Part shown: positions 46,759 to 64,000 of the stretch, piece by piece
Position numbering within the stretch: the stretch's first letter is position 1
Layout of the letters: each line of letters begins with the position of its first letter
Assembly (NCBI GenBank): GCA_017304675.1
Contig: JAFKLS010000017.1
Location: forward strand, 700,971 to 764,970
Length of the DNA: 64,000 nt
Direction: 5' to 3'
Origin: Sphingobacteriia bacterium
GTDB lineage: Bacteria; Bacteroidota; Bacteroidia; Chitinophagales; Chitinophagaceae
Program-made: the position numbers and the translations under genes
Notes under the pieces: model-generated
What the model saw: only the letters and a program-made list of their open reading frames with translations
The model's database searches: none
Told to the model about the DNA's origin: nothing

Positions 46759-46766
46759 CAAATGCC

Positions 46767-47367: not shown

Positions 47368-47639
47368 AAAGAATATTTTAATTAAAGACACATAAAACTG
47401 CCTAAGCATTGCATTTTGGCGAAAAAATTTATTCAATGGTGTGGGCAGCACACTGCATTTAGGTAGCTATAATAGCTTTTATTGAATGTAGAATCCAGAG
47501 CTAATGCAGAATAGGTACTCATTATTTTTTTTATTGCCGGTATTATTCATTAACTGAAAGTGAAACTGATTAATGAACAAAGAGTTGAGCATCTCTCCAT
47601 ATTGTCAATAAAAATTAGTATGCTTAATGCTGCCAACGG

Positions 47640-48017
47640 TTAGAAAACCTGAAAATCCACAATAAGGCTACAAATTTTCCCTTCATCATTGGTTCCCCAA
47701 TAACAAGGATACATCCCGTCTCCATATCCTGAATGAAACATAATTATATTTAAGTCTGGCTTATTGGGCAAATAAAAATTCAGCCAGTTTCCAGTGTCGT
47801 CTTCCGGATTGGTTGCATTTTTTTTGAATTCTGCAGCAAAAAAATCGTCATAAATATTTCCATCTGGGTTTCTTTGCATAAAACCTGAATCAAACTCATT
47901 ATATAATTGTTGAGCCTCTAAGTCGCAAAAGCAACCAAGCCCTGCATTAACCGGAAAACCAAAAAAATCATTGTCTTCATTTAATTCTTTTATATCCTGA
48001 TGTTCTGTTACTGCCAT
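47640..48017 (-). CDS. DUF4241-like protein, apparently N-terminally shortened
   Basis: A 125-residue soluble protein. The region FPVNAGLGCFCDLEAQQLYNEF and the C-terminal MFHSGYGDGMYPCYWGTNDEGKICSLIVDFQVF match the second half of DUF4241 proteins. The roughly 90-residue first half found in relatives is missing. The frame begins at an ATG at 48017, so it is either a natural short form or a cassette truncated at its 5' side. A CTGCCAACG arm at 47629-47637 lies directly after its stop. Confidence 0.65.
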   Translation of the reverse strand: MAVTEHQDIKELNEDNDFFGFPVNAGLGCFCDLEAQQLYNEFDSGFMQRNPDGNIYDDFFAAEFKKNATNPEDDTGNWLNFYLPNKPDLNIIMFHSGYGDGMYPCYWGTNDEGKICSLIVDFQVF

Positions 48018-48091
48018 CTTTATTTAACAGTTGAAGGATAGACTATCTGCTATAAACTTTTAGCAATACTTTTTAAGATTGTTATAATATA

Positions 48092-48136
48092 GCCATCAAT
48101 GTTCGAGGCTTGCCGGCAAAACTTTTGTTATGCGTT
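48092..48136 (-). repeat. attC-like site a (minimal form)
   Basis: A compact version of about 45 bp. Inner arms GGCTTGCC/GGCAAAAC (48107-48122) form a near-loopless hairpin. The AAC arm on the minus strand is CGCATAAC; the other end reads ATTGATGG where other sites have GTT, perhaps a mutated crossover triplet. It separates the DUF4241 gene from the cupin gene. Confidence 0.55.
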
Positions 48137-48164
48137 CTTTTTTTCATTTTATACTTGAAAGTAT

Positions 48165-48713
48165 TTATAAACTTAACGGTGGCCCTATATGTTTTATGTC
48201 ATGCTTTAAGGCCAATTTATCTATTTCTTCCTGAGTTGGATTTTTCAAGTCATTCGCTTCCTTAAAAAAATCTTCTAGCTCACCTGCTGGGGTTACTGCA
48301 TATATCAATTTTCCGTTTACTGAAAGTTGAAGCCATTGATGCGGAATATTTCTTGGAAGAAAAATTGTATCACCTTCATTCAGTTCGCCTTTGGTTTCGC
48401 CGCATACAAAACGGTATTTTCCTTCCAGCACTGTAAAAAACTCGTCTTGGTGAGGATGTACATGTAGAGGCGTGCCAACATTTCCAAACCCCGTAAATAA
48501 AAAGACACTTAGAGCATTGTTTGTATCATGTCTTGATATCACAACATCATTTGGATGCATGCCCATATATTTCATCATAGATTCTCCAGAACGGTTTTTA
48601 CCGGATCGGACTATAAATGGTTTTTCTGTGATTGTATAAGTAAATACAGTTTCTGCTAAAACAAATGAAGGGAAAGCGGCTAATGAGCTAAGTAAAAATT
48701 GTTTTCGTTTCAT
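48165..48713 (-). CDS. Secreted cupin-domain protein
   Basis: A 182-residue protein with a signal or Tat-like leader (MKRKQFLLSSLAAFPSFVLAE). The cupin motif 1 is PLHVHPHQDEFFTVLEG (GX5HXHX3-4EX6G pattern) and motif 2 is LNEGDTIFLPRNIPHQW. Metal-binding His and Glu are kept. The AraC regulator gene lies upstream in the same cassette, so the pair forms one unit. Substrate is unknown; similar single cupins include quercetinase-like and binding proteins. Confidence 0.85.
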   Translation of the reverse strand: MKRKQFLLSSLAAFPSFVLAETVFTYTITEKPFIVRSGKNRSGESMMKYMGMHPNDVVISRHDTNNALSVFLFTGFGNVGTPLHVHPHQDEFFTVLEGKYRFVCGETKGELNEGDTIFLPRNIPHQWLQLSVNGKLIYAVTPAGELEDFFKEANDLKNPTQEEIDKLALKHDIKHIGPPLSL

Positions 48714-48781
48714 GTTCTAAAAATTTAGAACACAAAGCTAATTTGGGTTATTGCTATTATGTTGGTACAAACTGGACTTTT

Positions 48782-49615
48782 TCAAACTTCTGCATCACCG
48801 AATGCACGTTCGGGAGCTTGTTTATCAATTTCGTAAAACTGAACAGGAGTATAGCCTGTAAACTGCTTGTATGCTCTCACCAAATGTTGATAGTCATGGT
48901 AACCACAACTCAGAGCGATGGAAAGCCAGTCTTTTTCCGGGAAACGGTTTTTCATACGAAAGGCTTTATCAAAACGAGTGATTTCTAAAAATTGCTTGGG
49001 TGGTATGCCAACCAATTCTTTGAACTTACGGTCAAATTGCCTGTGTGAAAGACAGGCAGCATTGAGGAATTTATCTAACGAAAATTTTTCTTCCTCTTTA
49101 AGCATCAATTTGCTTATCTCATCAACCGGATGATTTTTCTTTTTGTACTTTTCTTTTATGAAGTCTGCCAAAAATCGTTCAATAAGATGAATTACTTCAG
49201 CATAGGTTTTAGAATGAAACAATTGTTCATTTACAAGCCTGATGTTTTTTCCAAAAATATCTTCTGCATCCCAATGGAAGTTTACTAATTCATGAGCAGA
49301 GATATTTGTTAATTGACTGAAGGCAGAGGGTTGAAATACAACTTGAAATAAAAAAAAATCTTTTGGAACATATCGAAAGTTTACAATTGTATGTTGCCCC
49401 ATTAATGAAGTTTGCGTACAGACTAGTTTTGGATCTGAACTAAAGTAGTTTATGGCATCAGGATCTCTTAAATAAAAATGAAGACAAACCTCAGGCCTTG
49501 GTGGATAAGCTTTAACAGGCAAAGGAATGCCAGAAGGGAAGCGAAAATGTACAATCCGGTATAACCTGACGTACTCGGTCAAAAAAGGGGCTGGTTTGAT
49601 TTCATTTAGTAGCAC
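48782..49615 (-). CDS. AraC-family transcriptional regulator
   Basis: A 277-residue regulator. The N-terminal sensor part (about 1-160) contains AYPPRPEVCLHFYLRDP and is of the DUF6597 kind. The C-terminal double helix-turn-helix is LDKFLNAACLSHRQFDRKFKELVGIPPKQFL and IALSCGYHDYQHLVRAYKQFTGYTPVQF. It is transcribed into the cupin gene, which it may control. The R-type arm GTTATGTGTC of its cassette is at 49659-49650. Confidence 0.9.
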   Translation of the reverse strand: MLLNEIKPAPFLTEYVRLYRIVHFRFPSGIPLPVKAYPPRPEVCLHFYLRDPDAINYFSSDPKLVCTQTSLMGQHTIVNFRYVPKDFFLFQVVFQPSAFSQLTNISAHELVNFHWDAEDIFGKNIRLVNEQLFHSKTYAEVIHLIERFLADFIKEKYKKKNHPVDEISKLMLKEEEKFSLDKFLNAACLSHRQFDRKFKELVGIPPKQFLEITRFDKAFRMKNRFPEKDWLSIALSCGYHDYQHLVRAYKQFTGYTPVQFYEIDKQAPERAFGDAEV

Positions 49616-49647
49616 TTTAACCCAAGTTTAATACTGATCATATTAAC

Positions 49648-49823
49648 ATGACACATAACATTGAAGCATTTTTTAAAGTATCGCAATAGTGATTGGTCGG
49701 CCTGATGCAAATGCTTAATTAGAAAACTGGTGTTTAATATATTGAAAAAGTTTGATAGCGAAAAGGAGATGAGCAATTGCGGTATAGTCTGCCTACTTTG
49801 ATCAAATGCTTTGTTGGTTGCTG
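49648..49823 (-). repeat. attC-like site b
   Basis: Left arm GACACATAAC (49650-49659) pairs with the right end of site a (GTTATGCG). The right end TTGTTGGTTGCT pairs across the next small gene with site c. The body shares its right half (GATAGCG, AAAGGAGATGAGCAATTGCG, then CTACTTTG...AAATGC) with sites i and m. Confidence 0.7.
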
Positions 49824-49827
49824 TTAT

Positions 49828-50037
49828 TTACTTTTTATGCTTACCATAATGATTGTTCGTTTTGCTATTTTTATATGTACCACCTTTATGTGAACTCCCT
49901 TTACCACCTGAATAATGTCCGCCGTGGCTTGTCGTATGTTTACTGCCTGAATACCTTTTTTGCCCGAATGAATTCGAATTTGTCATCAGTAAAATGGCAA
50001 ATAGAAAAACAATGATGATTGCAATTTTTTGTCTCAT
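49828..50037 (-). CDS. Small secreted His/Gly/Lys-rich protein
   Basis: A 69-residue exported peptide. The signal (about 1-25, ending SNSFGQ) precedes a low-complexity mature part rich in His, Gly, Ser and Lys (KHTTSHGGHYSGGKGSSHKGG). His-rich repeats may bind metal, but no family is recognised. It forms a complete single-gene cassette: the arms GTTGGTTGCT (left) and AGCAACAAAC (right) match in nine of ten bases. Confidence 0.65.
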   Translation of the reverse strand: MRQKIAIIIVFLFAILLMTNSNSFGQKRYSGSKHTTSHGGHYSGGKGSSHKGGTYKNSKTNNHYGKHKK

Positions 50038-50305
50038 AGTTTGAAATTTAATTTTTAGAAAATAGTAATAAACTAGTTGTCAATATGATTAAAGTTAATA
50101 AAATAAAAATTAATATATAATCTTTTGTATTCTTATTGTAAATTTTATTGTAGACTGCTTTTTAGGATTAGTCAGCTATCCAAAACCTGTAGAAGCTTTA
50201 AATCCAAGATTGTGTCTTAATATTCTTTTGTAAGATGTCCGAGCAGCAAACCTTTTTCCGATGATGGTTTTCTAAAACAAAATTTAATAATTAGAATTAT
50301 TTAAA

Positions 50306-50403
50306 TAGCAACAAACGAGTATGACTTTATGCAGGGTGGCATTAGAATTCCGTCCGCCCAAACCGTCAAGCCACACTTGCACAAAGCCCTATGTTATGTG
50401 CCG
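50306..50403 (-). repeat. attC-like site c
   Basis: A 98-bp element. Inner arms ACTTTATGCAGGGTGG (left) and CACACTTGCACAAAGC (right) pair with wobble and a bulge. Outer arms are AGCAACAAAC on the left and GTTATGTGCC on the right, which are not complementary to each other. Its body (ATTCCGTCNGCCC) is shared with sites e and h. Confidence 0.7.
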
Positions 50404-50410
50404 TTTTTTA

Positions 50411-51304
50411 TCAGTTTGTAGTTAGTGAGGATAACCTGTCAAACCCAACTGTGTTGCGATAGATTTGAGGAGAAACGTCAGTATTGGTCTTAAAAAACCT
50501 GCTGAAATAATACTCGTCATCATAACCTAATTCGTAAGCTATTTGTTTTACAGGTTTACTGGTTAAATAAAGTTCCCGTTTGGCTTCAATAATTATTCTC
50601 TCTGAAATCAGCGATGTAATCGTTTTATTAAGATGTGCCTTTGTAATTTTTGCTAATGCTTTTGCTGTAATATGCAATATTTCAGCGTAGTCGCTTGCTG
50701 TATGCTTTTCTTTGTAATTTTTTTCAATAGCTTCTTTCAAAGATTGAAGTATAAAAGGCTCCTGCAAATTAGAAAGAGAATTTTTTACTTCTTCCTGCTG
50801 CTCTACCTTTAATCGGGCTGCATTGATTAAAAATATTTTTAAGTAGGAAATCAATAACTCGTATTGTGCCAATGCAACTATTTGCATTTCGGCTTTCATC
50901 TGCTGAATAAGCATTTGAAATGTGTTTATTGTTTTTGAGTCAATGCTTACAATTGGTGGCTGATAAATATTGTTGAATAAAACACCATTGCAGGCAACTT
51001 CTTCATGATGTTTATGTATACAAAAGAAATCAGGATGAAATTGAATAGCTATTCCGCTCAAATCACTTTCCGGAGTCAGCATAAATGGCTGATAAGGTGA
51101 AAAGGCCAACAAGCTATTGTTTGAATAAATGTATTCAGAGAAATCTGCTTTTAACTTTCCCTTGCCTTGTTTTATCCAAATCAAAGAGTAGTAGTTGTTT
51201 CGTTGGATATGGTCAAAAAAATTATAGTTTTCAAAACCGAATATTTTGAAAGCAAGATTGCCATTTTGTGGATTGATAAGCGTAAATGTTTCTTGGTTGT
51301 TCAT
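50411..51304 (-). CDS. AraC-family transcriptional regulator
   Basis: A 297-residue regulator. An N-terminal cupin-like sensor (about 1-150) precedes the HTH region: [28 protein letters not shown] and [32 protein letters not shown]. It overlaps the start of the next upstream gene's stop (ATGA at 51301-51304), forming an operon with a SnoaL-like and an AhpD-like gene. It is different from the AraC protein at 48782, with little identity outside the HTH. Confidence 0.9.
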
Positions 51305-51717
51305 TTTAATTTTCTGTCCTGCTGATTTATAGGCAAGTCATTAATGCTTGCAAAACGTTTTTTCATCAGACCGTTTTCGTCAAATTCCCATAACTCATTG
51401 CCATAACTTCTGTACCATTGTCCATTGTTGTCGTGCCATTCATATTCAAATCTTACTGCCATCCTGTTTTCTCTAAAACCCCAAAGTTCTTTTTTCAGTT
51501 TGTAATCTAATTCTTTTTGCCATTTTCTCTTTAAGAACTGTTTTACTTCTTCTCTTCCGTTTAAAAATTCTGTTCGGTTTCTCCATTCAGTATCTACAGT
51601 ATATGCAAGGCAAACCTTTTCAGGGTCTTTTGTATTCCAGGCATTTTCTGCCATTTGCACCTTTTGCAAGGCTGTTTCCAAAGTAAAAGGTGGCAACGGG
51701 TACTTTATATTTTCCAT
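51301..51717 (-). CDS. SnoaL/NTF2-like protein (DUF1348)
   Basis: A 138-residue cone-shaped-fold protein. DUF1348 features are [40 protein letters not shown] and [30 protein letters not shown]. Members of this fold act as small-molecule hydrolases or isomerases, or bind ligands; the reaction is unknown. The ATG at 51717 ([10 protein letters not shown]) is preferred to 51741. It lies between the AhpD-like gene and the coupled AraC gene. Confidence 0.85.
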
Positions 51718-51765
51718 TTTAATAAAATTTGTGCAGGGCAACTTTAATTTCCCTGCACTATGTTT

Positions 51766-52299
51766 TTAAATTGCTTTTGCAACTGGGAAGTCGATATCAA
51801 CTTTTGTAATAGCGTGCAAATAGTTCATCGCTGATTTTTCTGCTACCAGCATTACGAGTTCTACCAATTGACCTTTTGTGTAACCGGCGTTTAAAAAACC
51901 GTTTAAGGTTGTTTCAGAAATGAAACCTCTTTTAGCAGTGATTTCTTTTGCTAATGCAACCAAAGCATTTAGCTTTAAGTCAAACGCTGCCCCCCCTTTT
52001 CTAATTTCAATAGTTTGTTCTTCGGTAAATCCATTCATTGTACCAAGAAGTGTGTGAGCCGATTGGCAGTATAGACATTCATTTACTTGGCTTACCACTA
52101 AGTTTACAGCCTGTTTTTCTTTGTTGGAGAAGGCTGTCTTTGCATTCTGAAAGTTAAGGTAATTGCCGAGCGCTGTGTCGGACAAAGCCATTACAGCATA
52201 AAGGTTTGGAACCATACCGAGGCCTTTTTTAAGATTATCAAAAATTTCTTGATTGCTTGCAGACACTTCTTCTCTGCGTGGAACATTAAAATTTGCCAT
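51766..52299 (-). CDS. Carboxymuconolactone decarboxylase / AhpD-like protein
   Basis: A 178-residue all-helical protein. The AhpD-type redox centre ECLYCQSAH has Cys75 and Cys78 with a following His82. The N-terminal MANFNVPRREEVSASNQEIFDNLKKGLG is typical of this peroxidase-like group. The longer frame (start 52545) runs into sequence with no coding character, so the ATG at 52299 is used. It heads the AhpD-SnoaL-AraC unit, plausibly an oxidative or electrophile response module. Confidence 0.87.
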   Translation of the reverse strand: MANFNVPRREEVSASNQEIFDNLKKGLGMVPNLYAVMALSDTALGNYLNFQNAKTAFSNKEKQAVNLVVSQVNECLYCQSAHTLLGTMNGFTEEQTIEIRKGGAAFDLKLNALVALAKEITAKRGFISETTLNGFLNAGYTKGQLVELVMLVAEKSAMNYLHAITKVDIDFPVAKAI

Positions 52300-52722
52300 T
52301 GCTTTTATTTTAAATTTTATTGTCGTTATTGACAATGCAAAAGTGCAATGGTATTGTGTCCTGTAAAATGGATGAATGACGTAAGTGGATGGACAATTTT
52401 TTGTCTGTGTAAATTGAGTGCTATTGAAGGAGGGCTTAGGGTGACGCTCTAAAATGACACAAAACGAAGCTTCCCACAATTGTCCCTTCATGGTCACCAA
52501 TAAAATATTATGGCGGGTACTACAATGGGAAGTAGGGATACCCAATTGAAGAAATTCTCCAGCGAAAAGAGTTCGAGTTCTATGCTAATGGGTTCATAAA
52601 TGGGATGAATTATTTTCACCCCATTTTTATTTAAAAAGATTCGAGACGTGATCCTCACAGATAAGCAAATGAATTGTTATTCGCCGACTTTGCTTGATGC
52701 TTTGTTGTGGGCTATTTATGTC
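52300..52722. other. Intergenic stretch with right half of an attC-like site (d)
   Basis: Most of this 423-nt gap holds no gene. At its right end, 52683-52712 (GCCGACTTTGCTTGATGC then TTTGTTGTGGGC) matches the right half of sites i and m. The corresponding left half is not found; a weak arm GACACAAAAC at 52456-52465 may be its remains. An inverted repeat CTTCCCA/TGGGAAG lies at about 52471-52535. The site looks broken by a deletion or insertion. Confidence 0.5.
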
Positions 52723-53136: not shown

Positions 53137-53207
53137 AATGTCATTTTATTAAAAGACAAGAAAATATGAACAATCATTGCATCAATCTAAAATATTGTCA
53201 CGCAATA

Positions 53208-53340
53208 GTCCACAACGAATAGGCCTTTGTGCAGTTGTGGTAATAGCATTCCGTCTGCCCGTAACAGAAGCTAAATTGAAAAATAAATGTTGAGACTTGC
53301 TACGCCTGCCCAACTTGCACAAAACCTCGTGTTGCACGTA
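53208..53340 (-). repeat. attC-like site e
   Basis: Left arm ATAGTCCACAAC ends at 53216; right arm GTTGCACGTA is at 53330-53339. Inner arms GGCCTTTGTGCAGTTGTGG and CCCAACTTGCACAAAACC pair with one bulge. Body shared with sites c and h (ATTCCGTCTGCCCGTAAC). Confidence 0.72.
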
Positions 53341-53428
53341 GTTTTAGTCTAATTAAAGCATTTTAGCAAAACCAAAGAAAAGCTAAAGAATTAAATAACA
53401 AAGGCTTTCTATGGCTATTTTCATCGCG

Positions 53429-54010: not shown

Positions 54011-54012
54011 AA

Positions 54013-54744: not shown

Positions 54745-54927
54745 TTCTGGAAGTGTATTGTCTAAAGTACGGATGCTGCCATCGCCTGTTTTGATATTAT
54801 TTAAAGTTGCGTTATCGTTTAGGATATCACCGTCTTTTAAGCTTATCTTTTTTAAAAACCTACCGCTTAAAGAATAAATAAAGGTTACACCAGTAAGACC
54901 TGCATAATTTTTTTTATTATTCGTGTA

Positions 54928-55362: not shown

Positions 55363-55430
55363 AGTTGGTTGTTTTTATTAGTTATGATAGTTTTTTGCTA
55401 AAGTATTTTGGAATTGGAGTGATTGTCAAA

Positions 55431-55511
55431 AATTACGTGCAACGGAAAAGCATTTGTGTTTGTGGCGGAATTTGAAATACATCTGCTGGAAAAAATACCA
55501 ATTAAAAATAC
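55431..55511 (-). repeat. attC-like half-site f (left half only)
   Basis: Left arm TTACGTGCAAC pairs perfectly, across the whole three-gene unit, with GTTGCACGTA of site e. The inner sequence GCATTTGTGTTTGTGGCGG and the body are shared with sites k and n but stop after AATTAAAAATAC. The right half is missing. Confidence 0.7.
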
Positions 55512-55780
55512 GATGTAGGTAAAGAAACCCTATTAACGAAACCAGAGAGATGGTAATTATGTAAACATCAGCAGCAGCAGTACGTGCAGTGTCGTATCAT
55601 GATTACAGCAATACCAATTTTTAAAAAATAGCGGCTGTTAATGGTAATGCCTTCTCAAAGCGTTTAGATCGTTGGCAATTAGTATTTGGTGATGATTTGA
55701 ATTGATTTTTTATAAAAGTCTGCACAACTGATGTACGTGCTTTTTCTTCACACGCAACAGATAACTATTTTTGTAATGTT
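55512..55780. other. Non-coding stretch between half-site f and site g
   Basis: No intact gene on either strand. A short plus-strand fragment reads SKRLDRWQLVFGDDLN before a stop, which could be a remnant of an older gene, but I cannot assign it. Together with the truncated site f it suggests that a cassette was lost here. Confidence 0.4.
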
Positions 55781-55972
55781 ACTACTAACGGCTTCGGCTT
55801 GGCGGTTGGACGGGAACTTGGAAAACGTGCGCCGATTGATAAACTAAGATACAAAATATTCTCTGTCGCTCAGTTTCTAACGTCTAGCCGGAACTAACGC
55901 CGATGAATAGATGAAGTTGAAGGCGGCATTAATGTCCTGCCCGGCTGCCGCCAAACCGTTTGTTGGTTGCAG
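55781..55972 (-). repeat. attC-like site g
   Basis: Left arm ACTACTAAC, right arm GTTGGTTGCAG. Inner arms GGCTTCGGCTTGGCGG and CTGCCGCCAAACC pair over about ten bases with wobble. It belongs to the G+C-richer group with sites l and o. Confidence 0.62.
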
Positions 55973-55984
55973 TTTTCTGTCGCA

Positions 55985-57250
55985 CTACAAGGAATCAATC
56001 ATTTGCTTAAACTTACTGTCTTCGAAAAATTTTTTATAGTCCTGTATGTGCAGCATATCATAAATGGCTTTATGTTTATCCTTAGCGTTTGCATAATAAG
56101 ATTTACAAATTTCATATCCAACCCAATAACCCAAATCAGCAGGCTTATCTGCTGTTTCCTGGTCTGCATTTGCTATCCAATTTTCCGCTTTGTTTAAATA
56201 CATTTCTTTTTCAAATGATTCCCAAATTTGCTTTTCCTTTCCTTTGGCATACACCTTCAGCCTTTCATTCGCAGTTTTGCCTGATATTAGCTCTCCAATA
56301 AAATCAGCCATGCCTTCTACAAGCGGTGCTTTTAATAAAGTAGTATCAGAAGCCATACCATTTTGTAAGTAGTGAATTAATTCGTGCGCAACAGTATAAG
56401 GAAGCCCTTTAAAAGTACTGATGTTGTGTTTTTCCAAAGTCGTTAATTCTGTCGTGTCGGCTGTTGGCGACATACAGGCTTGGTCAATTCCTAAAATAAG
56501 TCCATAACTACAAGAAGTGCCAGCCGACCTTAACTTTCCTATCACAAAATAAATTGGTGGAAATACGGCTTCGGGATAAATCTTTTTTAGCTTGATAAAT
56601 GATTTTTGATATTCAGGTTTTAATTGGGCCGCTTTTAAAGTATTCTCCCGGATGCTTTCATAGTATTTACTTTTAGCATTGTGCATATAAACGAAATTGT
56701 CAACCGATTGAATTTTATTGACAAAATAATATTGTAATGCCATTGAACCCTTATCAAAATACGCGTATTTATATATTTGTTCTGCTTTGTCCTGCGAAAT
56801 TTTTGTCTTGTCGTATGCAGCCCAGAAATTTTTTACATCAGCCTCTATTACCTGAACATTCAGTGGATTTTTTGTATAAACCGGTTTTATAGACTTAAGA
56901 AGACTAAGCCACCTGTTAGATTTATTTATAAAGGAAAATGCTTCTTGTGTTTTTAGTTCAGGTAAGTCATTGAAGCCATTTTTTGTTACAGCCATTTCAA
57001 GACAATGAAATGTGTTCACACTGTCTTTTGCTTCAGCATAAGCAACTGACGCTATATAAAAATTTGTCTGTTTGGTAATTTTATTATCTGCTAACTCCGC
57101 AGATTGACACCAGGCTTTGGCTGCTTTATCAAATTCTTTAGCTTTGTAAAATTTGTTTCCAATTTCTAATAAACTATCAGAAGCTGATTGTGAGAAAGAC
57201 AGATTTGAAATAAGCATTAAAACGAGTGCAACAACATATTTTCTTGTCAT
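55985..57250 (-). CDS. Secreted protein with TPR-like repeats and DUF2268-type HExxH protease motif
   Basis: A 421-residue exported protein (signal about 1-20, ending LSFSQ). The N-terminal third has helical TPR-like repeats (DSLLEIGNKFYKAKEFDKAAKAWCQSAELA). The C-terminal half contains VAHELIHYLQ followed by LVEGMADFIGEL, a zinc-protease HExxH...E arrangement of the DUF2268/gliding-protein kind. Likely a periplasmic or surface metallopeptidase. It fills a single-gene cassette; its outer arms (GTTGATGG / CAACCAAC) match only in part. Confidence 0.75.
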   Translation of the reverse strand: MTRKYVVALVLMLISNLSFSQSASDSLLEIGNKFYKAKEFDKAAKAWCQSAELADNKITKQTNFYIASVAYAEAKDSVNTFHCLEMAVTKNGFNDLPELKTQEAFSFINKSNRWLSLLKSIKPVYTKNPLNVQVIEADVKNFWAAYDKTKISQDKAEQIYKYAYFDKGSMALQYYFVNKIQSVDNFVYMHNAKSKYYESIRENTLKAAQLKPEYQKSFIKLKKIYPEAVFPPIYFVIGKLRSAGTSCSYGLILGIDQACMSPTADTTELTTLEKHNISTFKGLPYTVAHELIHYLQNGMASDTTLLKAPLVEGMADFIGELISGKTANERLKVYAKGKEKQIWESFEKEMYLNKAENWIANADQETADKPADLGYWVGYEICKSYYANAKDKHKAIYDMLHIQDYKKFFEDSKFKQMIDSL

Positions 57251-57284
57251 ATTTTTTTATTGATTGAATGTCGAGCTAAAATTA

Positions 57285-57481
57285 CCATCAACGAACAGGG
57301 CTTTGTGCAGGTTGGGAATTAGTATTCCGTCTGCCCGTAACCGCTGCTGATTAAAAATATATTGTTGAAGTTATGTACAAAGCTGATAGTTATTCGTCGG
57401 CTGGAACTGAAGCTGGGATTTGCAATTAGCTGATGTTACAATGTCCAGCCCAACTTGCATAAAACCCAATGTTGCCTGCAG
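57285..57481 (-). repeat. attC-like site h
   Basis: Left arm CCATCAAC, right arm GTTGCCTGCAG. Inner arms GGGCTTTGTGCAGGTTGGG and CCCAACTTGCATAAAACCC pair with wobble and one bulge. Body shared with sites c and e. Confidence 0.72.
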
Positions 57482-58228
57482 TTATATTTTGGGGTTTGTC
57501 TTACGTTCTATTGCTTGCTTAGCTAAAAGTTCATATGGTTTTTTCAGAATTGTGTCGTGCCAAAGTTGGTCTGAAAATACCATCATTCGGCAGTCGTCAA
57601 TTTTGAGGTTGCTAAAAGCTTTGATGAAATCTATTTTTATTTCATTACAGCATACTATACTTTGTTTTAAATAATTCTTATTTTCCTTATTGCCAAATAT
57701 TTGGCAATACCATTTTATAGATTCAATATCTCTTCCATACATATATAAAAAACACTCTTGGCTAATAGTTTTCAGAAATGTTATAACATTTTTTTTGAAC
57801 TCATTAAAATCTTTCTTTAATTTTTTCTTCTGCTCATCATCGCCTATTTCTTTGAGCATATAATCCAATTCTGTTTCGGCAATTTTTAATAAGACTGACT
57901 TATTGTTTTGTCTATCATCAGTAAAGTTTTCTTTTTGTTTAAAATCCGAAGTATTATATGCCTTAAGTGCTTTATGCGTTATTTTCTTACTCTCAATATC
58001 AAAACAACTATGAATGGGTATGTAAAATGGCAGATTATTTTTCTTGAAAATTGAAACTATTTTATAATAATATTCAGGGTAAAGTTCTCTTAACTTTTCT
58101 GCCATTTTAATGCAAGTATATTCATCTCTTTTAAAGTGTCCTAACAAGTGTAAATAATTTCTGCAACATGGCACGTCATTAAAATTACCTAAATATTTGT
58201 ATTCATTGTCCTTAACATAATCTTTCAA
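57482..58228 (-). CDS. Cys-rich helical protein of unknown function
   Basis: A 248-residue soluble protein with no signal peptide. The predicted content is mainly helical, with a basic middle segment (DDEQKKKLKKDFNEFKKNVITFLK) and scattered Cys. No known family is recognised. Its start overlaps the end of the preceding secreted-protein gene by 17 bases, so translation is coupled. It is the last gene of a three-gene cassette, the start codon being the ATG at 58228. Confidence 0.6.
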   Translation of the reverse strand: MKDYVKDNEYKYLGNFNDVPCCRNYLHLLGHFKRDEYTCIKMAEKLRELYPEYYYKIVSIFKKNNLPFYIPIHSCFDIESKKITHKALKAYNTSDFKQKENFTDDRQNNKSVLLKIAETELDYMLKEIGDDEQKKKLKKDFNEFKKNVITFLKTISQECFLYMYGRDIESIKWYCQIFGNKENKNYLKQSIVCCNEIKIDFIKAFSNLKIDDCRMMVFSDQLWHDTILKKPYELLAKQAIERKTNPKI

Positions 58229-58514
58229 TTTTCATTTCAGATAAGGTTTGCTGCTTAAACTGACTTTTACGATCAGCAAATTTTCCAGTCAATCCTTTTG
58301 TTTCAACAAGAGCGGACGTTGAATTAAACTTTGCAAACTTCTTCGCAATACTTTCAATTTTCTCTGCATCCTGTTCATAAAATTCTATGTATATTTCTTT
58401 ATCAGAAATTGTAAACTCAATTTTTCCAGCTTTGCTGTTGTAGTTTGCTTTCTCCTGAGCAATGGCTGCATTTCCAATGCAAGCGAAAAAAATTAAAATA
58501 ATTATTTTTTTCAT
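58212..58514 (-). CDS. Small secreted protein of unknown function
   Basis: A 100-residue exported protein (signal about 1-19, ending AAIAQ). The mature part is KIEFTISDKEIYIEFYEQDAEKIESIAKKF and ends NQ-free with KIERLC. No family is recognised. It overlaps the upstream lipoprotein by four bases (58511-58514) and the downstream gene by 17, so all three are one tightly coupled operon. A frameshift joining it to the next gene was considered, but neither protein looks incomplete. Confidence 0.6.
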   Translation of the reverse strand: MKKIIILIFFACIGNAAIAQEKANYNSKAGKIEFTISDKEIYIEFYEQDAEKIESIAKKFAKFNSTSALVETKGLTGKFADRKSQFKQQTLSEMKIERLC

Positions 58515-58927
58515 TGTACTATAATTTTGGTTAAAATGATATATTCATACGTATAATCACCTGGGGCAATTATTTTTTCGCAAAATTGTTTTAAATCTCC
58601 TGCGAATTTTACCTGTAAGGATTGATTGGTTTGTTTTAAGTCTAATACTCGTTGCGGTAAAATGTCTTGGTTGCAAATAACCATTGTATGTATGCAATTG
58701 GAGCAGTTCCTCTCTACGTATACTATCGTGAATTTATTTTTAAAATTGTCGTTACTATTGTAATACTTGTTGTATTCAATTGTTCCAATCAAATTTGAAG
58801 TGTCAGATATAGTTGTTTTGATTGGGGCATCACAACCACAATCAGGCTGGGTGCTTTTTTTACAACTACTACTACTTAAAAATGTAATGGGAGAAATAAT
58901 TGCTGCTATGATTAATATACGTTTCAT
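58511..58927 (-). CDS. Cys-rich lipoprotein of unknown function
   Basis: A 138-residue lipoprotein with lipobox SSSSC (about residue 22) and a CGCDAP segment in the N-terminal mature part. Further Cys occur in RNCSNCIHTMVICNQ, perhaps a disulfide or metal site. No family is recognised. It is the first gene of the three-gene unit; 140 nt separate its start from site i, long enough for a promoter. Confidence 0.6.
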   Translation of the reverse strand: MKRILIIAAIISPITFLSSSSCKKSTQPDCGCDAPIKTTISDTSNLIGTIEYNKYYNSNDNFKNKFTIVYVERNCSNCIHTMVICNQDILPQRVLDLKQTNQSLQVKFAGDLKQFCEKIIAPGDYTYEYIILTKIIVQ

Positions 58928-59067
58928 AAATTTTGCTTTTTTAGATTAATGTAAAAATAAAAAATTACAGGTGGGCTTTTATCTCTTAACTGTGCTTGTT
59001 TTAATGATTTCATAAACGTTGTTTTGTCTGTCGTCACACTTCAAATTTTCAGGGTGTGTCCGATAGG

Positions 59068-59210
59068 GTTGCTTACAACGATTCCGCATTTAAGTAGAGG
59101 CGGAATTTGGAAATATCTTGTTGAAATTATTGAAAAAGTCGATAGCGAATAGGAGATGAGCATTTGCGCTGTCGTCCGCCGACTTTGCTTAAATGTTTTG
59201 TTGGCTGTAG
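59068..59210 (-). repeat. attC-like site i
   Basis: Left arm GGTTGCTTACAAC, right arm GTTGGCTGTA. Inner arms GCATTTAAGTAGAGGCGG and CCGCCGACTTTGCTTAAATG pair with two unpaired bases on one side. Almost the same body as site m. Confidence 0.78.
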
Positions 59211-59214
59211 TACT

Positions 59215-59967
59215 TTAATTCAAAATGATTTCATCTAATCGGCTCTCCATACTGTCAAGAAATTCAAATGTGTATTTTGCGGCTTCCGAAATTACAGTTT
59301 CAATTTCTGAAATAGCTTCTTGGATTTGCTCTTTTGTGTATTCCTCTAAAATATTATCGTGTGTGTCTTTTGGTTTGCCGATTACTTTATTAATCGTATC
59401 CCAAAAAATTATTTTGTCAAATCTGTTTTTAGGGTTTTGTCCTTGATGAACTTTTGAGTGTCTCTGAGTTTTAAATTCGTCGAGAAAGTCCGAAAATTTA
59501 CTCAAACTCTGTGCAGGTAATGTGTCTTTCACGGTTGGATGAACTGTGAATGAATACCAATTGGCATATCTTTCTTGAATTTGTAAATTGAAAACAAGAT
59601 TGCCGATTTTACCACATATGTCAATTGAAGTCACAACCCTGACAATAAAATTGTCGTAGTGATATTTATAGTAATTGTCTGCTTCGAGCTTGTCCTTGTA
59701 AAGGTTCGGAATTTTAGATTTGTCAACCTTTAGAAACAACACAACCTTTTCAAGGTCTTCAAAGTAAGATTGCAGGGAACCAACTGCAGTCATTATTGAT
59801 TTCAGGTATTTTTCTTTTTCTTCACCGTAATTGTCAAAGCTTTCTTCATTATTTCCTTTTGAAAATTCTTTCAAATGTCTTACATAAATTGGTTTTGTCG
59901 CAATGAATAACTTTCTAATGAAGCGTGATTGGTTTAAATATTCTGAAAAGAATTTGTATGTTATCAT
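59215..59967 (-). CDS. HEPN-domain protein, Cthe_2314-like
   Basis: A 250-residue all-helical protein with no signal peptide. A HEPN-type R-x4-H motif, RHSKVH, is in the region FKTQRHSKVHQGQNPKNRFD (about 168-173). HEPN proteins with this motif are often metal-independent RNases in toxin-antitoxin or anti-phage systems. No partner antitoxin gene is in the same cassette. It is a complete cassette: GTTGGCTGTA and TACTGCCAAC match in nine of ten bases. Family assignment is by pattern only. Confidence 0.6.
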   Translation of the reverse strand: MITYKFFSEYLNQSRFIRKLFIATKPIYVRHLKEFSKGNNEESFDNYGEEKEKYLKSIMTAVGSLQSYFEDLEKVVLFLKVDKSKIPNLYKDKLEADNYYKYHYDNFIVRVVTSIDICGKIGNLVFNLQIQERYANWYSFTVHPTVKDTLPAQSLSKFSDFLDEFKTQRHSKVHQGQNPKNRFDKIIFWDTINKVIGKPKDTHDNILEEYTKEQIQEAISEIETVISEAAKYTFEFLDSMESRLDEIILN

Positions 59968-59973
59968 AGTATT

Positions 59974-60110
59974 ACTGCCAACGGTTCCGCATTTGCGTTG
60001 TGCGGTATTTGAAATTATGTTGACGAATTAATTTTTTAGTTCAGTAAAGATAAAAAGTTCATTGTTTATTCTGTCGCACCGCAATAACGCTAAATGCTCG
60101 TGTTGGCAGA
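59974..60110 (-). repeat. attC-like site j
   Basis: Left arm ACTGCCAAC, right arm GTTGGCAGAA. Inner arms GCATTTGCGTTGTGCGG and CCGCAATAACGCTAAATGC pair completely except for two bulged bases. Read on the minus strand it has the unpaired spacers ACGA and GGAACC between outer and inner arms, as in attC. Confidence 0.82.
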
Positions 60111-60116
60111 AGTTTT

Positions 60117-60914
60117 TTAGTCTTCAATTTTCCTTTTTTTTCTTACTGTACATTTAAAATAAAGGCTTCCTTTTAAATAAAGTTTGTCCATATTTTTAGA
60201 AATATATTTATCTTCTATATCGTAATTAGCTTTATCGCTTGGACTGTAATAGTTATTAGTTTTAAAACTTAAATAGCCTGTAATATTTTGTCCAACTGTG
60301 TAATTGGGTTTTGTGTTTATAATTAAGTTCTGAAAATCATTTTTAACTACAATGGAATAACCAAGAGTGTCATTTAGTTTTGTTTTGTAATTTTTTGTTT
60401 CAACATCACCAACAAAATATTGACTATTAAATTTATCTTTTGTTATTTCAACACTAAAGCCCCAAAAGCCAAAACCTCCAAGCCCCATACTAACTTTGAT
60501 TGTGTCATTCGATAAATAACAATCGCATGGTGATATATAAGTGAAGTTTTTAAGTACTTTCAAAGTCTCTTGATCAATTTTGTTATTTTTAAAATAATTA
60601 AAGTAATACTTACTCCTATTATTCCTATAAACAGGAGATCTTAATTTCATATCTTCAATTATTTCTTGCTTCAATTCTTGTGTCGTCTTCTCCTTGTACG
60701 CTGGATCAATGACATTATCAGTTTTTATTAGCGAGTCTACTAACTTAATACGTTCTGCATAGATAGAGTCAAACTGTAACTCATATTTATTCATTTGCTC
60801 AAATTTTGAAATATTTGGAATTTGACCAACTAAAAAATTTTTGAAGTTTGTTTTTGTCTGTCCCAACACAATACTGGTAAAAAAGCTTGTTGTTATTAAT
60901 AATAGTAATCTCAT
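60117..60914 (-). CDS. Secreted protein of unknown function
   Basis: A 265-residue exported protein (signal about 1-18, ending IVLGQ). Mixed alpha/beta, with ISPCDCYLSNDTIKVSMGLGGFGFWGFSVEITKDKF in the middle and a basic C-terminus. No family is recognised. I chose the ATG at 60914; the longer frame starts inside site k, where the same FKFRHKHKC peptide also appears ahead of an unrelated gene (site n), which shows that this extension is not coding. Complete cassette: GTTGGCAGAA and TTCTGCCAAC match in ten of ten bases. Confidence 0.65.
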   Translation of the reverse strand: MRLLLLITTSFFTSIVLGQTKTNFKNFLVGQIPNISKFEQMNKYELQFDSIYAERIKLVDSLIKTDNVIDPAYKEKTTQELKQEIIEDMKLRSPVYRNNRSKYYFNYFKNNKIDQETLKVLKNFTYISPCDCYLSNDTIKVSMGLGGFGFWGFSVEITKDKFNSQYFVGDVETKNYKTKLNDTLGYSIVVKNDFQNLIINTKPNYTVGQNITGYLSFKTNNYYSPSDKANYDIEDKYISKNMDKLYLKGSLYFKCTVRKKRKIED

Positions 60915-60919
60915 AAAAT

Positions 60920-61121
60920 TTCTGCCAACGTTCTCGCATTTGTGTTTGTGGCGGAATTTAAAATACATCTGCTGGAAAAAATACCGATTAAAAATACAAA
61001 TGTTGATGATAAAATTTATTGCCTAATTTATAACGTCAAGCTGGAACTAAAGCTCAATGATGCAATTAGTTGAGTGCCTGCGTACAGTCCGCCGACATAA
61101 CACAAATGCAATGTTGGCTGC
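60920..61121 (-). repeat. attC-like site k
   Basis: A 202-bp element. Left arm TTCTGCCAAC, right arm GTTGGCTGC. Inner arms GCATTTGTGTTTGTGGCGG and CCGCCGACATAACACAAATG pair with bulges. Body almost the same as site n, and the left half the same as half-site f. Confidence 0.8.
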
Positions 61122-61147
61122 TGGCATTTTACCCAATTTTAATTTTA

Positions 61148-61597
61148 TCAATTTGCTTTATGGTCGTCATTATAGTTACTATTAACCCAATTAAAATTTC
61201 TCTTTTTGCTTTTGTCATACAAAAGCATCAATTTTCCCGTTGATGTCACTTTATAAATTTGTTTTCTCCACTCAGGAATTGGGTCGCGATTTTTCTTTGT
61301 CTGTAAATAGTGTTTCATAAAAATGAGACTATCATTTCTTACAGTCATTGTCCCAATGTCTGTAAATACATTATTGCAATCAGCGTCTTTTGCATATAAA
61401 TAATGTGTCAAAAGATATTTTCTTTTACCATTTTCAAGCCTGTACAAAAGGATTAATGTGTCTTTTGTGCCAACACTATTTTCTCTTGTCTTCCTTGTTG
61501 TTATAAAAGTAGTATTGTTAATTACAACAGTGTCGTTTTGTCCAAATGCAAATTGCCCAAATAAAAACAAAGCAAAAAATGTCAAATAAATTTTCAT
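61148..61597 (-). CDS. Secreted protein of unknown function
   Basis: A 149-residue exported protein (signal about 1-19, ending FAFGQ). The mature part is beta-rich with TLILLYRLENGKRKYLLTHYLY. No family is recognised. It is a complete single-gene cassette: GTTGGCTGC (site k) and GCAGCCAAC (site l) match in nine of nine bases. The start ATG is 20 nt after the cassette start. Confidence 0.6.
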   Translation of the reverse strand: MKIYLTFFALFLFGQFAFGQNDTVVINNTTFITTRKTRENSVGTKDTLILLYRLENGKRKYLLTHYLYAKDADCNNVFTDIGTMTVRNDSLIFMKHYLQTKKNRDPIPEWRKQIYKVTSTGKLMLLYDKSKKRNFNWVNSNYNDDHKAN

Positions 61598-61616
61598 GAC
61601 TTATACTGTCGAAGTT

Positions 61617-61820
61617 GCTTGCAGCCAACGACCGAGGCTTGCCGCAGTGCTGGCGTTCTTATTCGTCCGCCCACAACTGAAGCCCGGTCTGATTTTTAGC
61701 TAAAGTTACAACAATCGCCCAATAGAATATTGTCCGCCGGAGCCGAAGGTGAAAATTGGTTTGCCGCTGATTGCTCTTGTGTCTGCCAGCATTGCGGCAA
61801 ACCTAATGTTGTAGGCAGCG
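61617..61820 (-). repeat. attC-like site l
   Basis: Left arm GCAGCCAAC, right arm GTTGTAGGCA. The inner arms AGGCTTGCCGCAGTGCTGGC and GCCAGCATTGCGGCAAACCT pair over 20 bases with only wobble differences, the longest inner stem of the array. The body is unlike those of sites i/m or k/n. Confidence 0.78.
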
Positions 61821-61835
61821 TTTGTCTTTTGGGAA

Positions 61836-62342
61836 CTAATTTTTTGGAACACTTTGATAATAGCCGTTTACGATTTCAAATATGTCCTGATTTTTACCTT
61901 GAAGAAAAGAAAGATTTGTCATAAAGGATTTCTTGGATAATGCAGCATTAAGCCGTAAAAAGAGATTTTGGATTGGATTTAAAACTTGACTGTAAATAAT
62001 AGAATTGTCAGTAAGGCTAAATGCCAGAAAAATGCGTCCATTAAAATTATAGATGCTAATATCGATAATGTCTGTCCAGCTAATTTTAATGCCCATTGAA
62101 TTGTCAACAAAACATTCTTGTGTCAAAAGAATAGCTGGTTTTTTTTGTATGAATAGTACAAATGATTTTATAAACATGAACATGGATTGTCCTGCGATAA
62201 TAAAAAGTGCAAGAACGAAAACAATCGCTGCTGTTTTATGAACTTGTGTAACAAGAACAGTCAACAGAATAACAAAGCCGATAGCAACAATAAAATTGAA
62301 AGTCGTATTAAACGGGGAGTAAGAAATTTTTTTGTCGTCCAT
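61836..62342 (-). CDS. Two-TM membrane protein of unknown function
   Basis: A 168-residue protein with two adjacent hydrophobic helices (about 11-30 and 36-60) and a soluble C-terminal half with a PH-like beta pattern (KISWTDIIDISIYNFNGRIFLAFSLTDNSII). No family is named with confidence; it resembles small bPH-type membrane proteins. A complete cassette: GTTGTAGGCA (site l) and TGCCTACAAC (site m) match in ten of ten bases. Confidence 0.65.
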   Translation of the reverse strand: MDDKKISYSPFNTTFNFIVAIGFVILLTVLVTQVHKTAAIVFVLALFIIAGQSMFMFIKSFVLFIQKKPAILLTQECFVDNSMGIKISWTDIIDISIYNFNGRIFLAFSLTDNSIIYSQVLNPIQNLFLRLNAALSKKSFMTNLSFLQGKNQDIFEIVNGYYQSVPKN

Positions 62343-62345
62343 AAA

Positions 62346-62490
62346 GTTGCCTACAACGTTTCCGCATTTAAGCAGAGGCGGAATTTGAAATTATGTTGTT
62401 GAAATTAATTGAAAAAGTTGATTAGCGAAAAGGAGATGAGCAATTGCGTTGTCGTCCGCCGACTTTGCTTAAATGCTTTGTTAGTGGCAG
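62346..62490 (-). repeat. attC-like site m
   Basis: Left arm TGCCTACAAC, right arm GTTAGTGGCA. Inner arms GCATTTAAGCAGAGGCGG and CCGCCGACTTTGCTTAAATGC pair with unpaired bases on one side. Its body is near-identical to site i and shares the right half with site b. Confidence 0.82.
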
Positions 62491-62597
62491 TTAGTAACGA
62501 CTTGTGTTTAATATAACATGTCATTTTATTTTTGAGTTAAAACTATTATTTAGTCTACCTACTTTAATTCAAATCAATCTATATTCTATTAAGTCAA

Positions 62598-62927
62598 TTA
62601 AATTTTAAACTTATGAAATGTCAACCAATATCGGATGAATAAAATGTATGACAATAGATAAAAGGCTGAAATAAATTTATAAGTTGTTGTCATATTTTTT
62701 TTGTCTTTCTTTCTTAGTGTATATATAAGGACTAAGTCAAAGAATAAAATTGGTAAAGGCGAAAAAGCCCATAAAATGCTGTTAAAGGTCGAGTACAAAA
62801 AACTAGAAGATTGCTCTCCAAATACGAGCATTGACAAGACAGGATATAATGAAAATATAAATAACCCTAAACTTAGTTGTGCGATAATTACGATTATAAA
62901 ACGAGTCCAAATAATATTTCTAAACAT
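62598..62927 (-). CDS. Small multi-pass membrane protein of unknown function
   Basis: A 109-residue hydrophobic protein with three predicted helices (about 10-32, 45-66, 85-105). Features include a basic loop (TLRKKDKKNMTT). No family is recognised. I chose the ATG at 62927; the longer frame begins inside site n and shares a false N-terminal peptide with the frame over site k. Complete cassette: GTTAGTGGCA and TGCCACTAAC match in ten of ten bases. The 107-nt gap after its stop holds no feature. Confidence 0.62.
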   Translation of the reverse strand: MFRNIIWTRFIIVIIAQLSLGLFIFSLYPVLSMLVFGEQSSSFLYSTFNSILWAFSPLPILFFDLVLIYTLRKKDKKNMTTTYKFISAFYLLSYILFIRYWLTFHKFKI

Positions 62928-62937
62928 GATTGAAAAA

Positions 62938-63142
62938 TTGCCACTAACGTTGACGCATTTGTGTTTGTGGCGGAATTTGAAATACGTCTGCCAGAACAAA
63001 TGCTGATTAAAAATACAAATGTTGATGATAAAATTTATTGCTCAATTTATAACATCAAGCTGGAACTAAAGTTCAGCGATGCAATTAGTTGAGCACCTGC
63101 GTTCAGTCCGCCGACATAACACGAATGCTTGTGTAGGCAGCT
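62938..63142 (-). repeat. attC-like site n
   Basis: Left arm TTGCCACTAAC, right arm GTGTAGGCAGC. Inner arms GCATTTGTGTTTGTGGCGG and CCGCCGACATAACACGAATGC pair except for bulged bases. Body near-identical to site k. The right arm reads GTAGG without the usual GTT, and the matching arm at site o has the same change. Confidence 0.8.
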
Positions 63143-63148
63143 GTGCTT

Positions 63149-63838
63149 TTACGCCCAACTGAATTTTGCATCTCTTGTCAAGTGATCTTTGTCAATATCT
63201 AAGTCGTTGCTGAATGTTTCTATTATTGTCGTTACAATTTCTTTCCGATTTATTGTTTTGTTTGTCCGCCTAATGTCAGTATAATTTTCTCTTGCTGCTT
63301 TTTCTGTTAACTGACGAACTGTTTTTAAATCCAGCCCCTTTCCAAACTTCTCAGCAACTTTTATAGAAATAATAGAAAAAACAATACCAGAAAGTGCAAT
63401 TTTCCAGTCAAAGAAAAAAGCAAAAAGAGATAATAAAAAAATAACTATAAATGTCAGGGCCAACCAACCAGGATAAGTTAGAATTTTTATGTCAGTACCG
63501 ACGTAACTCTGAAATTCATTTGCCTTTTGTCGGCGATTGTGTCTTGGGAAGAGGTCAACCAGTTTGCTGTCAAGTTTGATTTCATTCTCGTCAATTAACT
63601 GTGTCGTACTGATAGCCTTTCTTATTCTATAAAATGCCTGCTGCTTTGTGCAGTCGTCATAATTTTCGTAATTGATATTATTTTCAAAAACGTCGCACAA
63701 ATCTCCAAATGTCTTAACGTCGCTAAATGCAGTTTTGTCAAACTTAATACCAAATGATTTTTCAAGTTTGACTACAACGTCGCCAATATCTTCAGCTTCG
63801 TAATTGTCAAGTTTCGTTATGTCGTTGAGGTCTGTCAT
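63149..63838 (-). CDS. Membrane protein with N-terminal acyl-carrier-like domain
   Basis: A 229-residue protein. The first 60 residues (DIGDVVVKLEKSFGIKFDKTAFSDVKTFGDLCDVFENNI) resemble acyl-carrier proteins but lack the Ser of the DSL motif, so phosphopantetheine attachment is unlikely. Two hydrophobic helices lie at about 125-162. A basic C-terminus with IRRTNKTINRKEIVTTIIETFSNDLD follows. Function is unknown. Complete cassette: GTAGGCAGC and GCTGCCTAC match in nine of nine bases. Confidence 0.65.
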   Translation of the reverse strand: MTDLNDITKLDNYEAEDIGDVVVKLEKSFGIKFDKTAFSDVKTFGDLCDVFENNINYENYDDCTKQQAFYRIRKAISTTQLIDENEIKLDSKLVDLFPRHNRRQKANEFQSYVGTDIKILTYPGWLALTFIVIFLLSLFAFFFDWKIALSGIVFSIISIKVAEKFGKGLDLKTVRQLTEKAARENYTDIRRTNKTINRKEIVTTIIETFSNDLDIDKDHLTRDAKFSWA

Positions 63839-63843
63839 AGCAT

Positions 63844-64000
63844 TGCTGCCTACGTTCGGGGCTTGGCGATGGCGTGGCTGCTGCGTTTCGTCACGCTTGA
63901 ACTGAAGCCAAATATAGTGATGTTGTTGATGAATATTAAAAATGTTGAATAGCGTTCTGTCGAGCCCGTGACGAAAGGAAAATAGTAGTACAAATGCTGA
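63844..64000 (-). repeat. attC-like site o (cut by window edge)
   Basis: Left arm GCTGCCTAC at 63845-63853 pairs with the right end of site n. Inner arm GGGGCTTGGCGATGGCG follows, similar to sites g and l. The AAC-arm end and the inner right arm lie at or beyond the window end. Confidence 0.65.

What the first reader, a model, noticed from the sequence alone, without database searches (positions are those of the whole stretch)
47626..64000. Integron-like gene cassette array with unusual attC-like sites in a Bacteroidota genome
Seen directly: 12-13 intergenic elements lie between leftward genes. Read on the minus strand, each has an outer arm ending AAC, a short unpaired spacer, an inner stem with bulged bases, a variable middle, the inner stem again, a spacer and GTT plus an arm. 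The outer arms match across the gene, not within the element: GTTGGCAGAA, GTTGTAGGCA, GTTAGTGGCA, GTTGCACGTA, GTTGTGG(G/A)CTAT and others each have their complement on the far side of their own gene. Known: integron cassettes carry GTTRRRY at the start and RYYYAAC at the end, which pair in the excised circle. Inference: this is an integron or integrase-less array whose arms depart from the usual consensus.
Basis: partly seen in the sequence, partly recalled or inferred. Interest (0 to 1): 0.95.

Follow-up and report, generated by a model that had tools for sequence, protein, structure and literature searches.

The report
Integron-like arrays with a different recombinase
The window ends in a row of separate gene cassettes, several of them bounded by their own private pair of matching end sequences, and in many related Bacteroidota such rows lie directly behind a recombinase gene that lacks the hallmark domain of known integron integrases, so this is likely a second kind of bacterial gene-capture platform that standard searches would miss.

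Summary
The window's last 16 kb is an array of attC-like sites running off the end of contig C15: covariance models place 12 sites here and 38 in the genome, 37 of them in array segments. Start and end arms of one cassette match each other, not the arms inside one site; they run 15 nt, with a fixed A·C position (T·G on the bottom strand) at base 11. In one relative a 476-bp cassette is identical in three contexts, with breakpoints at GTT. Array heads carry a conserved attI-like motif.

Starting from recombinases beside that motif, 77 of 79 arm-linked site pairs in 80 named loci lie downstream on the recombinase's strand. This recombinase family, found in 155 of 394 genomes of the window's taxonomic family, forms a clade apart from IntI, and 86 of 86 rows measured lack the ~40-residue insertion that marks IntI. 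Canonical IntI passes its cut-off in 1 of 294, with a stop inside. An extra N-terminal domain weakly resembles XPB/HARP folds. The window's genome has three attI-like heads but no such recombinase in its assembly. Best reading: an integron-like system with a non-IntI integrase. No activity was tested.

The parts
47626..64000 (-). cassette array, genes and sites read on the minus strand; runs off the end of contig C15
63878..64000 (-). attC-like site, cut off by the contig end; its start arm GTAGGCAGC (63853) pairs with GCTGCCTAC (63141): a case with GTA/TAC in place of GTT/AAC
62934..63147 (-). attC-like site
62343..62494 (-). attC-like site (short type)
61615..61822 (-). attC-like site
60915..61127 (-). 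attC-like site
59968..60116 (-). attC-like site (short type)
59065..59214 (-). attC-like site (short type)
57278..57485 (-). attC-like site
55775..55976 (-). attC-like site
55434..55512 (-). right half only of an attC-like site (read by eye); its arm GTTGCACGTA (55443) pairs with 53340
53202..53345 (-). attC-like site (short type)
52650..52715 (-). left half only of an attC-like site (read by eye; arm ATAGCCCACAAC)
50302..50407 (-). attC-like site, weaker
   Evidence: E 8e-6 and 4e-6
49645..49827 (-). attC-like site, degenerate right half
59215..59967 (-). cassette gene, HEPN_Cthe2314 domain
55985..57250 (-). cassette gene, GldB-lipoprotein/DUF2268 protease-like
50411..52299 (-). three genes between two sites: CMD, DUF1348 and AraC-type
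61148..63838 (-). four single-gene cassettes without a Pfam match above cut-off
46686..46759 (+). tRNA-Lys(CTT) at the array's far end; the same tRNA stands at the array-free orthologous locus of three same-genus genomes

Best explanation
The elements are likely the recombination sites of an integron-like cassette array, of a kind whose cassettes occur in one relative as exact copies bounded at the GTT triplet, and the array is likely served by a Bacteroidota family of tyrosine recombinases that lies directly behind such arrays in related genomes and lacks the insertion that marks IntI. Inferred working: a cassette is released as a circle. Its own two 15-nt arms then pair around the inner stem to make a hairpin, most stably on the bottom strand, where the fixed A·C position becomes a T·G pair. 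The recombinase would cut between G and TT and join the cassette to the attI-like motif at the array head, TTKCGTATATTTRNGWG^TTR, or to another site. Shown: the arms, the array layout, the attI-like motif, the recombinase neighbourhood, the GTT breakpoints and the missing insertion. Predicted by computation: bottom-strand folding and the protein fold. Untested: catalysis, cut position, single-strand pathway and cassette expression. In the window's own genome no such recombinase was found in the assembly, so its arrays are either orphaned or served by a gene in an unassembled stretch.
For: Arms: positions 4-10 identical between start and end of the same cassette in 8 of 16 (own genome), 10 of 23 (attI-like loci) and 41 of 96 (recombinase loci), against shuffled means of 0.76, 0.59 and 1.10 and maxima of 5, 3 and 6 in 500. 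Position 11 is A against G in 71 of 97 well-matched cassettes, in 53 of the 59 whose first ten bases are identical, while positions 12-15 match again at 0.69-0.86. attI-like motif: 50 places in 35 of 394 family genomes, 25 of 101 genera; the reversed pattern gave 0. Recombinase genes lie upstream of 8 of those 50. Of loci with >=5 kb downstream 20 of 30 have an array, of those with >=1.5 kb 23 of 52. Contigs end within 1.5 kb downstream in 28 of 80, upstream in 6 of 80. Genomes with the motif carry the recombinase more often: 25 of 35 against 130 of 359, counted by me from the listings, Fisher p 9e-5. Mobility: a 476-bp cassette 100% identical at three places in G390, and a 682-bp cassette 92% alike between G390 and a Sediminibacterium, both bounded at GTT. 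Missing insertion: IntI4 aligns in two stretches, leaving out its residues 178-242; the spacing of catalytic R to HxxR is 79-95 in 86 of 86 family rows (two pairs identical) against 134 in the nine IntI I chose. Excised-form hairpins are more stable on the bottom strand in 80 of 97.
Against: No activity was measured. No member of the recombinase family was found in the window's genome, nor in G052 and G202 of its genus, which still carry sites (15 and 22 by model R2). Only 8 of 50 attI-like motifs have a recombinase beside them, one of these broken (G234) and one a fragment (G294); two of the 50 had under 400 nt of upstream DNA. 29 of 52 loci with >=1.5 kb downstream show no arm-linked pair, so either my scan misses sites or some members do something else. 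The attI arm test is weak: 24 of 49 against a shuffled mean of 7.35, max 15; among the 8 heads with a recombinase 4 match. The G240 integrase that started the trail falls outside the main clade on a long branch. For the array form of the sites the bottom strand is more stable in only 63 of 97, and part of the excised-form preference follows from position 11 itself.
Confidence: 0.8

Rival explanations
1. It is a canonical integron remnant (CALIN): a standard IntI with its additional domain built these arrays and was lost, and the neighbouring recombinase is unrelated.
For: CALINs are common in genomes (PMC9024848, passages read); the window's genome has no recombinase beside its three array starts; proteins named integron integrase from Bacteroidota exist in the protein database.
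Against: TIGR02249 passes its cut-off in only 1 of 294 family genomes (at most 7 candidates scored in each), G172, with a stop inside, and G172 has none of the attI-like motifs. The arrays sit on one side and one strand of the other recombinase family, 77 of 79 pairs.
Confidence: 0.1
2. A dispersed repeat family (REP/MITE-like) that happens to lie between genes, without cassette movement.
For: The site bodies recur as sub-types about 85-92% identical within the genome and, for some, between genera.
Against: 37 of the 38 sites found in the genome are clustered in arrays; arms are private to each cassette and match across the gene; cassettes are copied with GTT breakpoints.
Confidence: 0.03
3. 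Cassettes are moved in double-stranded form by XerC/XerD or a Xer-like reaction (comparable to pdif modules), not by folded single strands.
Against: Sites keep inner stems, unequal unpaired spacers and arms that match as a cassette's own hairpin, more stable on the bottom strand in 80 of 97; the private arms differ between partner sites, which a double-stranded crossover with a shared overlap would not allow easily (inference).
Confidence: 0.12
4. Each gene with its private inverted arms is a small transposon-like unit with terminal inverted repeats.
For: Arms form inverted repeats around single genes.
Against: No transposase domain in the 20 window reading frames scanned; neighbouring units share one structured site; the breakpoints seen fall at GTT inside that site. 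Target-site duplications were not searched for.
Confidence: 0.02

Closest known systems
Sedentary chromosomal integron (Vibrio-type superintegron) with IntI, attI and attC
   Same: tandem single-orientation cassettes, structured sites with GTT/AAC cores, conserved head site, recombinase at the head, cassette copies bounded at GTT, predicted bottom-strand preference, many near-identical sites in one genome
   Different: recombinase lacks the IntI insertion and lies outside the IntI clade; usually carries an N-terminal domain; arm consensus GTTRNNNGYN-A-NNNT instead of GTTRRRY; several attI-like heads in some genomes, most of the 50 without a recombinase beside them; recombinase usually on the same strand as the array
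CALIN (cluster of attC sites lacking IntI)
   Same: the window's genome shows sites and cassettes without an integrase
   Different: here the array starts keep attI-like heads and relatives supply a non-IntI recombinase
Integron-like subgroup of simple tyrosine recombinases (PMC8138268, passages read)
   Different: the passages read tie no insertion-less member to an array; I could not test whether these proteins fall in that subgroup
XerA/XerC-like tyrosine recombinases
   Same: core fold and, against this genome's XerC-like protein (95), the spacing of catalytic residues
   Different: neighbourhood of cassette arrays; extra N-terminal domain

Membership tests
Integron (canonical) | integrase IntI with its additional (patch III / I2) domain | tested here: not met
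   86 of 86 recombinase rows have the short spacing, 9 of 9 chosen IntI the long one; TIGR02249 172-203 bits against a cut-off of 265 in 6 of 6 recombinases beside heads; nothing over that cut-off and no family member found in the window's genome
Integron (canonical) | attI site at the array head | tested here: met
   a conserved motif heads the three array starts found in the genome and 50 places in 35 of 394 genomes; function untested; the arm test was only 24 of 49 against a shuffled mean of 7.35
Integron (canonical) | attC architecture R''-L''...L'-R' with unpaired spacers and GTT/AAC core | tested here: met
   one window site has GTA/TAC instead
Integron (canonical) | R-box consensus GTTRRRY / RYYYAAC | tested here: not met
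   GTTR holds, positions 5-7 vary, G is common at 8 and A at 11 of the start arm
Integron (canonical) | cassettes mobile with breakpoints at GTT | tested here: met
   comparative only, in relatives:
Integron (canonical) | recombination of the folded bottom strand | tested here: inconclusive
   predicted folding favours it in 80 of 97 excised forms and 63 of 97 array forms; the reaction itself cannot be tested here
Integron (canonical) | Pc promoter driving the first cassettes | not tested
   TATATTTG in some attI-like motifs resembles the Bacteroidetes -7 box (recalled); no test made
CALIN | two or more attC sites found by the IntegronFinder model with no IntI nearby | not testable with these tools
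   that covariance model is not held; Rfam finds only the tRNA
Integron-like subgroup of Smyshlyaev et al. | membership in their phylogenetic subgroup | not tested
   their profiles are not held

The most novel reading that the evidence does not exclude
Bacteroidota run a second integron system: a XerA-like integrase that never had, or has lost, the IntI hairpin-reading insertion and instead reads folded cassette sites with a HARP/XPB-type N-terminal DNA-recognition domain. Its cassettes carry private 15-nt arms with a built-in strand mark (A·C on top, T·G on the bottom), and it works in trans on several attI-headed arrays per genome.
Probability: 0.35. Interest if true: 0.93.

Novelty: new variant of a known kind. 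Interest (0 to 1): 0.82.

Why it matters
Integrons are counted by finding IntI with its additional domain. The 2008 survey kept only proteins holding it or the intI patch (PMC2426708, passages read). IntegronFinder 2.0 names one complete integron in Bacteroidetes itself, Salinibacter ruber M1 (PMC9024848, passages read). If this reading holds, integron-like platforms are common in this family (155 of 394 genomes carry the recombinase) and have been largely invisible. It also makes an open question testable: whether the IntI insertion is really required to recombine folded single-stranded sites, or whether another solution exists. Among the best 120 of 7853 homologues listed, the names shown are of the kind XerD, site-specific integrase or tyrosine-type recombinase; none says integron.

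Tried and rejected

Literature: listings (full for 10, 11, 49 and 51, cut for the others) showed no report of integron-like arrays with an insertion-less recombinase in Bacteroidota; most subscription papers and all preprints are outside that library. I read passages, not whole papers, of PMC9024848, PMC9668308, PMC8618304, PMC8138268, PMC2426708, PMC8565304, PMC2727003 and PMC8352920. on HARP and XPB were seen as listings only; that those domains read DNA structure is recalled.
Full report
WHAT IS THERE. On the minus strand the last 16 kb of the window is a row of genes separated by elements of about 105-215 nt. Each whole one has an outer arm ending AAC (TAC in one), a short unpaired spacer, an inner stem, a variable middle, the stem again, a short spacer ending in C, and GTT plus an arm. 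Covariance models made from 13 short and 14 long sites of the genome find 12 of them in the window (11 whole, 1 cut by the contig end) and 38 distinct ones in the genome (my union of the two listings, 32 and 35 matches). 37 are in array segments: eight at the end of contig C13, two on C14, twelve on C15, one on C16, seven on C17, two on C18, three on C19 and two on C20. One is isolated, C13:737882. Only 150 first-look candidates per genome and model were scored, so further weak sites may exist. The window ends because the contig ends, which is what near-identical repeats do to short-read assembly (inference).

THE ARMS. For cassettes between two neighbouring sites, the arm after GTT at the gene's start was compared with the reverse complement of the arm before AAC at its end. 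Positions 4-10 are identical in 8 of 16 cassettes of this genome, 10 of 23 beside attI-like motifs and 41 of 96 beside recombinases; shuffled pairings give means of 0.76, 0.59 and 1.10. Within one element the arms agree at about the shuffled rate. Pooling the 97 of 135 cassettes with at least 6 of 7 agreeing (38 dropped), position 11 is A at the start and G at the (complemented) end in 71, while it matches in 2; positions 12-15 match again at 0.69-0.86, and from position 16 agreement is 0.11-0.29. So the arm is 15 nt long, GTTRNNNGYN-A-NNNT, private to each cassette, with one fixed non-matching position. It is an A·C mismatch if the top strand folds and a T·G pair if the bottom strand folds. 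Pairing beyond seven bases is known in classical sites (9-11 nt, PMC2727003, passages read); the freely varying middle, the 15-base length and the fixed position are what differ here.

FOLDING. Joining each site body with its own cassette's start arm, as in the excised circle, DNA folding energies are lower for the bottom strand in 80 of 97 cases (means -36.6 and -33.9 kcal/mol), and the bottom strand is more stable with its own arm than with the next cassette's arm in 95 of 97. In the array form the bottom strand is lower in 63 of 97. This is prediction, and part of it follows directly from position 11.

THE HEAD SITE. Three array starts of the genome (C14, C16, C18) begin with the same motif directly before the first GTT. 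A 19-base version with one mismatch occurs at 50 places in 35 of 394 genomes of the family, and its reversed control at none. From 67 non-redundant copies the motif reads TTKCGTATATTTRNGWG^TTR; the search pattern fixed part of it. The arm behind the head matches the end arm of a downstream site in 24 of 49, shuffled mean 7.35. G072, G294 and G360 have two heads each, one with and one without a recombinase beside it; G390 has three, two with. In G294 the second head keeps 198 bp of homology that includes a remnant of the recombinase's last codons (read from the sequence), which suggests that heads are copied without the gene.

THE RECOMBINASE. Eight of the 50 heads have a tyrosine recombinase gene within 1.4 kb upstream, five on the array's strand and three divergent; one of the eight is broken and one a fragment. 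A relaxed motif also stands beside the gene in further loci fetched because of the recombinase. Arm-linked site pairs were then sought on both sides and strands. 77 of 79 lie downstream on the recombinase's strand, although more upstream DNA was held. An array is found in 20 of the 30 loci with at least 5 kb downstream and 23 of 52 with at least 1.5 kb; the rest show none. The family is present in 155 of 394 genomes at E <= 1e-60, and not found in the window's own. In the same genus G138 has it, followed by an attI-like motif at a contig end, and G138 also has the most sites: 67 by model R2, against 35 in the window's genome, 22 in G202 and 15 in G052.

MOVEMENT. In G390 a 476-bp cassette is 100% identical at three places: directly behind two different heads, and inside a third array where it is followed by a second copy that holds a run of N. 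Identity begins and ends at GTT each time. A 682-bp cassette is 92% alike between G390 and a Sediminibacterium, again GTT to GTT, with different neighbours. At the window's own locus, three same-genus genomes keep the flanking genes and the tRNA-Lys(CTT) but show no array in the 20 kb taken, apart from one stem-scan hit in G052 that I read as noise; neither covariance model hits those stretches.

CARGO. Of 20 window reading frames scanned (one, 58212-58514, was not), eleven have no Pfam match above the curated cut-off; the others are a HEPN protein, DUF6734, a GldB/DUF2268-like protease, a carboxymuconolactone decarboxylase, DUF1348, two AraC-type regulators, a cupin and DUF4241.

VERDICT. It works like an integron on most structural counts that could be tested, but it fails the test that defines membership, the IntI domain, and departs from the R-box consensus. 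I therefore call it an integron-like system of a new variety rather than an integron in the strict sense. The copy in the window is an array for which no recombinase was found in the assembly.

Noticed in passing
L057 / G172:C24:31071-31796: The only integron integrase over the family cut-off among 294 relatives; it carries an in-frame stop, and no attI-like motif was found in that genome.
   Followed up: partly
L254 (record titled Phycisphaerales MAG): This recombinase with a divergent arm-linked pair sits in a record labelled Planctomycetota: either transfer across phyla or a binning error.
   Followed up: no
G000:C13:737882-738013: One isolated attC-like hit (E 7e-8) far from any array.
   Followed up: no
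window 59215-59967: A cassette encodes a HEPN-domain protein, a class often found in defence and toxin-antitoxin systems (recalled).
   Followed up: no
L041 13044-14520: The first cassette of the C14 array appears to encode a P-loop ATPase-like protein (read by eye).
   Followed up: no
L150 315-1017: Tandem repeats of about 140 bp stand some 1.2 kb upstream of a truncated recombinase in G294.
   Followed up: no
L042 and L113: A GTTGNGCGT-CAT / GTTGNGCGTTCGT arm variant with one extra T recurs in different genera, as if arms evolve by paired change.
   Followed up: no
window 47600-64000: The array is poorer in G+C (33.5%) than the first 46.6 kb of the window (37.5%).
   Followed up: partly
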